A stretch of 64,000 nucleotides of DNA from Gemmatimonadaceae bacterium (GTDB lineage: Bacteria; Gemmatimonadota; Gemmatimonadetes; Gemmatimonadales; Gemmatimonadaceae), in NCBI GenBank assembly GCA_025934775.1, contig JAICWO010000002.1:186001-250000 (forward strand), given 5' to 3'. A program made the position numbers and the translations under genes. Shown here in pieces: positions 52,533-53,121 of this stretch. A model generated the notes under the pieces. The model was not told where the DNA came from, did no database searches, and saw only the letters and a program-made list of their open reading frames with translations. Numbering within the stretch: the first letter of the stretch is position 1; each line of letters opens with the position of its first letter.

Positions 52533-52561
52533 TTGACAGTTCTTCCAATTAGTGACATGTT
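52533..52561 (+). promoter_or_regulatory. promoter of leader ORF, copy 1
   Basis: TTGACA at 52533-52538, a 17-base spacer and CATGTT at 52556-52561. The -10 box ends 7 bases before the leader ATG, so the predicted transcript starts at or next to the start codon. The same spacing occurs at copy 2 (60085-60113), which has the better -10 box CATACT. Confidence 0.6.
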
Positions 52562-52568
52562 GCAAAAT

Positions 52569-52652
52569 ATGACGAACCGCTCTCTCCCGGTCTTCACGAT
52601 TACGCAGCCGGCCACCGCTATGTCGGTGGTCGAGCCGCTGGCTCGTGTGTAG
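52569..52652 (+). CDS. 27-residue leader peptide, copy 1
   Basis: A short frame of 27 codons and TAG. It shares 17 of 27 residues with copy 2 at 60121-60204, including LP near the start, TIT in the middle, ATAMSV at 15-20 and a final R-V. No ribosome binding site precedes it, and the promoter spacing points to a leaderless mRNA. It is followed within 26 bases by a strong terminator and then by the truncated ABC ATPase gene. A regulatory leader (attenuation) is the best explanation; a free-standing bioactive peptide is the alternative. Confidence 0.6.
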   Translation: MTNRSLPVFTITQPATAMSVVEPLARV

Positions 52653-52678
52653 ACCGGTAGGAGACTAGCGACCCCTCG

Positions 52679-52709
52679 CGCCCTTCCGGACACCCCGGAA
52701 GGGCGTTTT
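52679..52709 (+). terminator. Rho-independent terminator between leader and ATPase, copy 1
   Basis: An 11-bp perfect stem CGCCCTTCCGG (52679-52689) / CCGGAAGGGCG (52695-52705) with loop ACACC, followed by TTTT. It lies between the leader ORF and the ATPase start, the position of an attenuator. Confidence 0.8.
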
Positions 52710-52761
52710 CAGTTTCCCCACGGGTGGTCCGGCTCGGGCGAGCTCTCACGACGAGACCGCC

Positions 52762-53121
52762 ATGCACGCCTCACAGACCGCCGCCGTCGAAATTCACGAT
52801 CTTCGCAAGAGCTTCCGCGCGCGCAAAGCGCGCGGCGCGGGGGCTCGCGCCCGCCTGGCCGATCTGGTCTCTCCGCGCACCGAGCGCGTGACCGCGGTCG
52901 ACGGTGTGTCGCTGCGAATCGAGCCGGGCGAGCGGGTCGCGTTCATCGGGCCGAATGGCGCGGGGAAGTCGACGACGCTCAAGATTCTCGCCGGGATTCT
53001 GTACCCGGACTCGTGCACCGTCACGGTCGACGGGCTCGTGCCGTGGCGCGATCGCCGTGCGCTCGGCTTCCGCGTCGGCACGGTGTGTGGCCAGCGCTCG
53101 CAACTGACGCGGCCCACGTGA
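52762..53121 (+). pseudogene. ABC transporter ATP-binding protein, truncated N-terminal copy
   Basis: 119 residues with the Walker A motif GPNGAGKST and the segment up to the Q-loop (FRVGTVCGQRSQL). Homology to the downstream copy stops there and five unrelated codons lead to a TGA. The signature motif, Walker B and H-loop are missing, so it cannot hydrolyse ATP on its own. The start is the same as in copy 2, after the attenuator-like leader. It may be a remnant of an insertion or duplication that placed about 7 kb of other DNA inside the ATPase gene. Confidence 0.85.

What the first reader, a model, noticed from the sequence alone, without database searches (positions are those of the whole stretch)
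52533..53121. Leaderless 27-codon peptide plus terminator upstream of an ABC exporter ATPase
Seen: the -10 box ends 7 bases before the leader ATG, no ribosome binding site, then a strong terminator and the ATPase start; the same arrangement recurs at 60085-60318. The two peptides keep LP, TIT, ATAMSV, E, L and R-V at fixed positions (17 of 27 identical) despite many changes. Inferred: ribosome-mediated attenuation in which translation of a leaderless leader senses a ribosome-targeting or other compound and controls read-through to the exporter.
Basis: partly seen in the sequence, partly recalled or inferred. Interest (0 to 1): 0.85.

Follow-up and report, generated by a model that had tools for sequence, protein, structure and literature searches.

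The report
Leaderless ribosome-sensing switch before exporter
In front of two copies of an exporter gene in a Gemmatimonadaceae bacterium lies a 27-codon reading frame whose RNA is predicted to fold so that a ribosome stuck near its start would let transcription run on into the exporter genes, and because the same layout with unrelated peptides recurs before related exporter genes in four bacterial phyla it is likely a general translation-stress switch.

Summary
In detail: both copies have TTGACA-17-(-10)-7 nt-ATG, no ribosome binding site, a 27-codon ORF and a 12-pair terminator before an ABC ATPase. Its stated reason does not: the peptides differ by 10 replacement and 5 silent codons, and LP/TIT/ATAMSV lie in base-paired RNA. 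Leader ORF plus terminator recur before related (viologen-exporter-type, PF06182) ATPases in Gemmatimonadota, Acidobacteria, Chloroflexota and Alphaproteobacteria: 17 leaders, peptides unrelated between lineages; 12 start 6-13 nt after the -10 with no clear Shine-Dalgarno. Folding with a modelled ribosome predicts a classical attenuator for the window's leaders: without a ribosome, or with one late in the ORF, the terminator arm is mostly free; a ribosome on the first codons releases a post-stop strand (CCGGUAGG...AGC) that pairs with that arm. Eight leaders fetched later support the early-versus-late contrast (combined p 2e-6 against shuffles; five individually). Ribosome-mediated transcription attenuation by a leaderless leader is the best reading; the signal is unknown, and lineages differ in the ribosome-free state. 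Neither ATPase copy in this window is intact (one truncated, one frame broken); relatives are intact. New variant of a known kind; no experiment.

The parts
52533..52561 (+). predicted sigma-70-type promoter, copy A (TTGACA-17-CATGTT)
   Evidence: promoter scoring (best site of 110 nt, -10 ends 7 nt before ATG); not listed by the stricter scan
52569..52652 (+). leaderless 27-codon leader ORF, copy A (MTNRSLPVFTITQPATAMSVVEPLARV)
   Evidence: hairpin z -3.8
52578..52598 (+). region 1: ORF codons 4-10, predicted to pair with region 2 when no ribosome covers it
52654..52669 (+). region 2: post-stop strand CCGGTAGGAGACTAGC, predicted antiterminator partner of the terminator arm
   Evidence: 11 bases of the arm paired with it when the ribosome is at codon 4 or 6
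52678..52706 (+). intrinsic terminator, 12 pairs, followed by a U-rich tail, copy A
52762..53121 (+). truncated ABC ATPase (119 aa; homology to copy B ends near 53104)
60085..60113 (+). predicted promoter, copy B (TTGACA-17-CATACT)
60121..60204 (+). leaderless 27-codon leader ORF, copy B (MTSHCLPAYTITPFATAMSVGELLRRV)
   Evidence: hairpin z -3.7
60206..60221 (+). region 2 of copy B, CCGGTAGGAGACCAGC, predicted antiterminator strand
60234..60262 (+). intrinsic terminator, copy B
60318..61191 (+). ABC ATPase, copy B; reading frame broken near 60600 (N-terminal part from 60318, C-terminal part in the ORF 60706-61191)
61188..62009 (+). first membrane subunit (no Pfam hit itself; its counterpart in L068 hits PF06182)
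62012..62815 (+). second membrane subunit, ABC2_membrane_6 (PF06182)

Best explanation
It is likely a ribosome-mediated transcription attenuator: a 27-codon leader ORF, predicted to start at or next to the first base of the mRNA, lies in front of an intrinsic terminator and an ABC exporter operon. Shown by sequence: promoter-like boxes, ORF, stop codon directly before a CCGGUAGG-type strand, terminator, exporter genes, and recurrence of the layout before related exporters. Predicted by folding for the window's leaders: without a ribosome the early codons (region 1) pair with the post-stop strand (region 2) and the terminator (3:4) is free to form; a ribosome late in the ORF on average also leaves the terminator arm free; a ribosome held on roughly the first 8-10 codons covers region 1 and releases region 2, which pairs with the 5' arm of the terminator (2:3), so RNA polymerase would read on into the exporter. 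Inferred: stalling early in the ORF, by a translation inhibitor or a shortage of charged tRNA, is the signal; the peptide sequence itself matters little.
For: Layout kept in G395 and G312 of the same genus with diverged sequence. Same layout with unrelated peptides of 25-30 codons in an Acidobacteria MAG (L068), an Alphaproteobacteria MAG and members of its order or class (L070, L114, L148-L150) and a Chloroflexi MAG (L071). Where the promoter lies 29 nt or more from the start, an SD of 5/6 appears in L117, L126, L128 and of 4/6 in L132, L139; where it lies 6-13 nt away (12 leaders) none exceeds 4/6, which argues that the ORF is translated. Stop-to-terminator gap is 18-31 nt in 16 of 17 leaders. 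Mean cost of freeing the terminator arm (kcal/mol) in A, B, G395, G312, L068, L070: no ribosome 1.4-3.5, ribosome at codons 2, 4, 6, 8: 6.6-9.5, ribosome at five positions of the last eleven codons: 2.0-5.2; both contrasts reached by 2, 5, 0, 2, 0, 0 of 300 shuffles; means hold for five footprint sizes, the original included. With the ribosome at codon 4 the arm pairs with the post-stop strand in A, B, G395 (11 bases), G312 (13, both partners changed) and L068 (10). Leaders fetched after the statistic was fixed (8): early-minus-late combined p 2.2e-6, early-minus-none 3.6e-4. 27 other terminators in the held sequences give contrasts near zero; none reaches those of the seven (both contrasts) and two (early-late) leaders compared.
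Against: Not all leaders agree. Of the first nine, L071 and L117 are not significant (30 and 33 of 300 shuffles) and L114 fails early-none (158 of 300). Of the eight later ones, L128 (74 of 200), L132 (16 of 200) and L148 (28 of 300) do not stand out, and L149 fails early-none (138 of 300). Without a ribosome the arm is already sequestered in L071, L114, L126, L128, L149 (9-13 kcal/mol), so the ribosome-free state differs between lineages. Late positions are not uniformly free: at the last codon A 5.1, G312 6.6, L070 5.2, and peaks of 7.6 (A) and 9.5 (L068) at codon 24; at the last codon the best fold of L070 still holds the antiterminator and that of G312 pairs 11 arm bases upstream. ORF hairpins beat shuffles (z -2.2 or below) in 9 of 17 leaders; 8 do not. 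A plain duplex test for the antiterminator is not significant for A, B, G395, G312, L068, L117 (significant for L070, L071, L114), and the 1:2 duplex only for A and G395 at p<0.05. Covariation is thin: 2 of 44 pairs with double changes, unfavourable covariation term, three sequences. The first profiles were seen before the statistic was chosen; leaders, starts and arms were picked by eye; L149 and L150 are related. Both ATPase copies in this genome are damaged. No transcript, ribosome or expression data exist.
Confidence: 0.7

Rival explanations
1. A metabolite- or drug-binding RNA (riboswitch) in which the open frame is incidental; ligand binding would switch the same hairpins.
For: Strong folding of the whole ORF in the window's leaders; replacement changes exceed silent ones; a related exporter in a Cohnella MAG (L072) lies behind a Guanidine-I-like riboswitch (E 0.0015, 29.6 bits against a cutoff of 63).
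Against: No Rfam match above chance for the window's leaders; related leaders keep an ORF but no common sequence; ORFs with an SD replace leaderless ones in some Chloroflexota; in five Chloroflexota leaders Met codons are 18/256 in frame against 3/522 in the other frames; 25-30 codons in 11 of the 12 leaderless cases.
Confidence: 0.13
2. The attenuator senses one uncharged tRNA (amino-acid or aminoacyl-tRNA-synthetase stress), not a drug on the ribosome. This is a sub-case of the attenuator reading, so its odds overlap with it.
For: metG lies directly upstream of the exporter ATPase in L125, L127, L129, L137; Met is enriched in five Chloroflexota leaders pooled (18/256, p 3e-5; all seven Chloroflexota leaders 19/319, p 2e-4); proS lies divergent to L071.
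Against: Met 5/181 in the seven non-Chloroflexota leaders counted (p 0.40), 4/73 in L148-L150; L117 has none and L139 only 2/62; no run of one codon in the window's leaders.
Confidence: 0.2
3. Remnant: a duplicated, decaying exporter locus with an ordinary terminator; nothing is regulated here.
For: Copy A ends in a truncated ATPase, copy B has a broken frame; exporter found in only 3 of 179 family genomes at E 1e-80.
Against: The same layout with intact ATPase frames in G395, G312, L068, L070, L071 and others; leaders A and B have diverged yet both keep ORF, hairpin and antiterminator.
Confidence: 0.12
4. The leader peptide acts in trans, as reported for peTrpL.
For: A terminated leader mRNA encoding a free small peptide would be made constitutively (inference).
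Against: Peptide sequence is not conserved between lineages or under visible purifying selection.
Confidence: 0.03

Closest known systems
bmrB-bmrCD attenuator of Bacillus subtilis (PMC4191407; abstract, section headings and discussion passages seen)
   Same: Leader ORF with alternative stem-loops and an intrinsic terminator before a multidrug ABC transporter; translation of the leader needed for induction; ribosome as sensor of ribosome-targeting antibiotics.
   Different: There the terminator lies within the bmrB-coding region and the transporter is BmrC/BmrD; here the ORF is short, predicted leaderless, with the terminator behind it, and the exporter is an ATPase with two PF06182-type permeases.
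toiL uORF of Escherichia coli (PMC12121999; abstract and passages seen)
   Same: Proposed stalling at different positions of one uORF, by at least five antibiotic classes, switches the downstream gene.
   Different: Acts on a ribosome binding site and Rho-dependent termination, not on an intrinsic terminator.
trpL of Sinorhizobium meliloti (PMC7298713; passages seen)
   Same: RNA 5' end is the ATG of the leader ORF; transcription attenuator.
   Different: 14-aa leader of a tryptophan operon (Trp sensing: recalled).
Leaderless polycysteine ORFs of mycobacteria (seen only as a title in the reference list of PMC13236596; paper not held)
   Same: Leaderless short ORFs as attenuators.
   Different: By its title cysteine-responsive; here no repeated codon.
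ilvB1 attenuator of Mycobacterium tuberculosis (PMC13236596; passages seen)
   Same: Mutually exclusive terminator and antiterminator set by ribosome position; ribosome at the stop codon prevents the antiterminator.
   Different: Senses branched-chain amino acids through regulatory codons; leader of an amino-acid operon.

Membership tests
ribosome-mediated transcription attenuator | short leader ORF followed by an intrinsic terminator before the regulated gene | tested here: met
   17 leaders
ribosome-mediated transcription attenuator | mutually exclusive antiterminator released by a stalled ribosome | tested here: inconclusive
   predicted by folding only: met for both window leaders against shuffles and in the pooled later set, not in every leader; no experiment
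ribosome-mediated transcription attenuator | translation of the leader changes read-through | not testable with these tools
   needs reporter or in vitro transcription-translation
leaderless leader ORF | transcription starts at or within ~5 nt of the start codon | tested here: inconclusive
   promoter prediction only: -10 to ATG 7 nt in A, B, G395, L070, L149, L150; 6 in L114, L148; 9 in G312, L071; 12 in L068; 13 in L123
amino-acid-sensing attenuator | run or excess of codons for one amino acid | tested here: not met
   window leaders: none; Met in excess only in the pooled Chloroflexota leaders
known riboswitch or Rfam cis-element | match to a covariance model | tested here: not met
   only chance-level matches
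conserved arrest peptide (erm/cat type; recalled) | conserved amino-acid arrest motif | tested here: not met
   10 replacement against 5 silent codon changes A-B; unrelated peptides between phyla
viologen-exporter-type ABC exporter (PF06182) | DrrA-like ATPase with two ABC2_membrane_6 permeases | tested here: inconclusive
   second permease of the window hits PF06182, the first has no Pfam hit; both hit in L068, one of two in L071, the one tested in L129 hits; ATPase best NCBIfam drrA, below its cutoff; five of the 120 listed homologues carry the name 'viologen exporter family'

The most novel reading that the evidence does not exclude
Leaderless leader ORFs form a peptide-independent class of translation-stress sensor: the first base of the mRNA is the start codon, so any event that freezes a ribosome in the first ~9-14 codons, whatever the inhibitor, exposes an antiterminator and turns on a broad ABC exporter. 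Sequence and structure are free to drift while ORF length, stop position and the 1:2/2:3/3:4 logic persist across phyla; in Chloroflexota the same exporter has been rewired to Met-rich leaders or to the metG operon.
Probability: 0.33. Interest if true: 0.8.

Novelty: new variant of a known kind. Interest (0 to 1): 0.62.

Why it matters
Attenuators are often recognised by a conserved or amino-acid-biased leader peptide. Here the layout, not the peptide, is kept across four phyla, and most of the leaders found would be leaderless, so a search that needs an SD or a conserved peptide would miss them. It gives a directly testable model of how uncultured lineages might sense translation trouble and switch on exporters, and a simple search rule: promoter, start codon 6-9 nt after the -10, 25-30 codons, terminator 18-31 nt after the stop.

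Tried and rejected
Motif scan CGGTAGGAGACNAGCGA over 395 Gemmatimonadota genomes: 46 genomes match, 46 places outside the own genome; the reversed control pattern also matches in many genomes (not totalled). The 29 of 46 places that were fetched (L009-L037) were read and none shows the layout; 17 were not read. Own genome: only the two copies at up to one mismatch. Rfam: window nothing above chance; 27 related loci at gathering scores only tRNAs and a group II intron; L076, L081, L083 nothing at E 0.5. Plain duplex test for an antiterminator: not significant for A, B, G395, G312, L068, L117; replaced by the ribosome-masking test. Three-sequence covariation too thin. Peptide conservation as evidence rejected. 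An early-Pro codon idea was dropped: in many but not all leaders, not tested further. Leader not seen in 34 of 38 loci (some have little upstream DNA; L074 has a terminator-like hairpin and was not followed), in L112, in 21 of 28 loci and 6 of 10. L116 and L119-L122 were first read on the wrong strand and re-read. L111, L109 and L110 were not read.

Full report
What is there. The window (contig C20 of a 4.88-Mb genome) holds two copies of the same arrangement. Copy A: TTGACA 52533, 17-nt spacer, CATGTT, 7 nt, ATG 52569, 27 codons, stop 52650-52652, terminator 52678-52706, ATPase start 52762. Copy B: TTGACA 60085, 17 nt, CATACT, 7 nt, ATG 60121, 27 codons, stop 60202-60204, terminator 60234-60262, ATPase start 60318, then two membrane subunits to 62815. 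The ATPase after copy A is a 119-aa fragment; the copy-B frame breaks near 60600. I describe these breaks only. The genus is in Gemmatimonadaceae: contig C162 (17757 bases) of the same-genus genome G395 agrees in length and in the encoded ATPase (100%) with record JAICKA010000053.1, titled Gemmatimonadaceae bacterium.

Not peptide conservation. Between A and B the ORF differs at codon positions 1, 2, 3 by 3, 10, 8 changes, 10 replacement and 5 silent codons; A-G395 10 and 4, B-G395 9 and 3. The stretches LP, TIT and ATAMSV fall in or at paired segments of one long hairpin that holds most of the ORF. A and B are identical from the terminator to the ATPase ATG (84/84) and 91-94% in the ATPase, but only 74% in the ORF and 56% in the promoter, so a breakpoint lies at the terminator.

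Relatives. Same-genus G395 and G312 keep promoter, 27/28-codon ORF, terminator and an intact ATPase frame. A genome-contig search with the G395 ATPase gave 38 loci; four carry the layout: G395 itself (L067), L068 (Acidobacteria), L070 (Alphaproteobacteria), L071 (Chloroflexi). Whole-genome searches, genomes with a match: 3 of 179 of the family, 1 of 298 of the phylum (own), 2 of 396 of the phylum of L068 (one of two has the leader), 2 of 23 of the order of L070 (both), 6 of 29 of the class of L071 (two of eight loci), 28 of 301 of its phylum (7 of 28 loci with a leader, two of them the same as), 10 of 337 of the class of L070 (4 of 10, one of them L070). Together 17 distinct leaders; peptides are unrelated between lineages. 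Where tested (L068, L071, L129) PF06182 permeases follow; five of 120 listed close homologues of the ATPase are named 'viologen exporter family' by their source.

Is the ORF translated? Twelve leaders have a promoter-like -10 ending 6-13 nt before the start codon and no SD above 4/6. Five Chloroflexota leaders have the best promoter 29 nt or more away (weak in L128); three show an SD of 5/6 and two of 4/6. Eleven of the twelve have 25-30 codons (L123 has 62); the gap from stop to terminator arm is 18-31 nt in 16 of 17. In the five Chloroflexota leaders of the later set Met codons are 18/256 in frame against 3/522 in the other two frames (Fisher 6e-7); L139 contributes little (2/62), and the two other Chloroflexota leaders, L071 and L117, have 1/29 and 0/34. 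These points argue for real translation; none is an experiment.

Attenuator logic. For the transcript up to the terminator's 5' arm I computed the free-energy cost of freeing that arm, with a ribosome (about 27 nt) placed at each codon. In A, B, G395, G312, L068 and L070 the cost is 1.4-3.5 kcal/mol without ribosome, on average 6.6-9.5 with the ribosome at codons 2, 4, 6, 8 and 2.0-5.2 over five positions of the last eleven codons; both contrasts are reached by 2, 5, 0, 2, 0 and 0 of 300 dinucleotide shuffles. L071 (30/300) and L117 (33/300) do not stand out; L114 does for early-late (3/300) but not early-none (158/300). Late positions are not uniformly free: the last codon gives 5.1 (A), 2.6 (B), 3.0 (G395), 6.6 (G312), 1.9 (L068), 5.2 (L070), with peaks at codon 24 of 7.6 (A) and 9.5 (L068). 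The means do not depend on footprint size (five tried). With a ribosome at codon 4 the arm GCGCCCUUCCGG pairs with the post-stop CCGGUAGGAGAC.AGC in A, B, G395 (11 bases); in G312 both partners have changed and 13 bases pair; in L068 10 with CCGGAAGCGU; in L070 the partner is GGGGCCC inside the ORF, and there the best fold keeps it also with the ribosome at the last codon. ORF-hairpin z-scores: A -3.8, B -3.7, G395 -3.7, G312 -2.8, L068 -5.2, L070 -2.4, L071 +1.4; L148 -1.0, L149 -1.4, L150 -0.4; L114 +0.4, L117 +1.2, L123 -2.2, L126 -2.8, L128 +0.4, L132 -1.8, L139 -3.4.

Later leaders. The statistic was chosen after seeing the first nine profiles, so I applied it unchanged to leaders fetched later. 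Shuffles reaching the early-late and early-none values: L123 5 and 4 of 200, L126 0 and 8, L128 74 and 177, L132 34 and 35, L139 5 and 1; L148 55 and 36 of 300, L149 0 and 138, L150 0 and 1. Combined p: 2.2e-6 and 3.6e-4. L149 and L150 are related, so these are somewhat optimistic; start codons and arms were picked by eye. Twenty-seven other terminators in the held sequences give contrasts near zero and none reaches those of the nine leaders compared.

Mechanism. Early-held ribosome: read-through. Ribosome late in the ORF: on average termination. No ribosome: termination in the window's type of leader, but the arm is already sequestered in L071, L114, L126, L128 and L149. The signal is inferred. 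Ribosome inhibitors fit the precedent of bmrB (PMC4191407) and toiL (PMC12121999); tRNA charging is possible, above all in Chloroflexota, where metG directly precedes the ATPase in L125, L127, L129 and L137.

Known work. Ribosome-mediated attenuation of an ABC exporter is known (bmrCD, abstract, passages). Leaderless leader ORFs are known (S. meliloti trpL; mycobacterial ones seen as a reference title). The hits listed by my paper searches (capped lists, titles and abstract starts) show no leaderless attenuator before a PF06182 exporter and none in Gemmatimonadota; the library holds open-licence papers only. So: new variant of a known kind.

Noticed in passing
L125, L127, L129, L137 (Chloroflexota): A methionyl-tRNA synthetase gene lies directly upstream of the exporter ATPase in 4 of 28 Chloroflexota loci, and in-frame Met codons are enriched in five other Chloroflexota leaders pooled.
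   Followed up: partly
L072 3810-3922: A Guanidine-I-like riboswitch (E 0.0015, below the family cutoff) precedes a related exporter in a Cohnella MAG; similar-looking leaders in L076, L081, L083 have no Rfam match.
   Followed up: partly
L071 2201-3859: A prolyl-tRNA synthetase gene lies divergent to the exporter and its leader.
   Followed up: no
window 52678-52761 and 60234-60317: Copies A and B are identical from the terminator to the ATPase start, but their promoters and ORFs are about as diverged as between species: leader exchange or gene conversion with a breakpoint at the terminator.
   Followed up: partly
window 56881-60044: A PadR-type regulator gene followed by a MacB/FtsX-type permease lies just upstream of copy B.
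   Followed up: no
L139, within about 90 nt upstream of its leader ORF: A further short ORF with a hairpin and U-rich run lies in front of the leader, as if two attenuators stood in series (read by eye).
   Followed up: no
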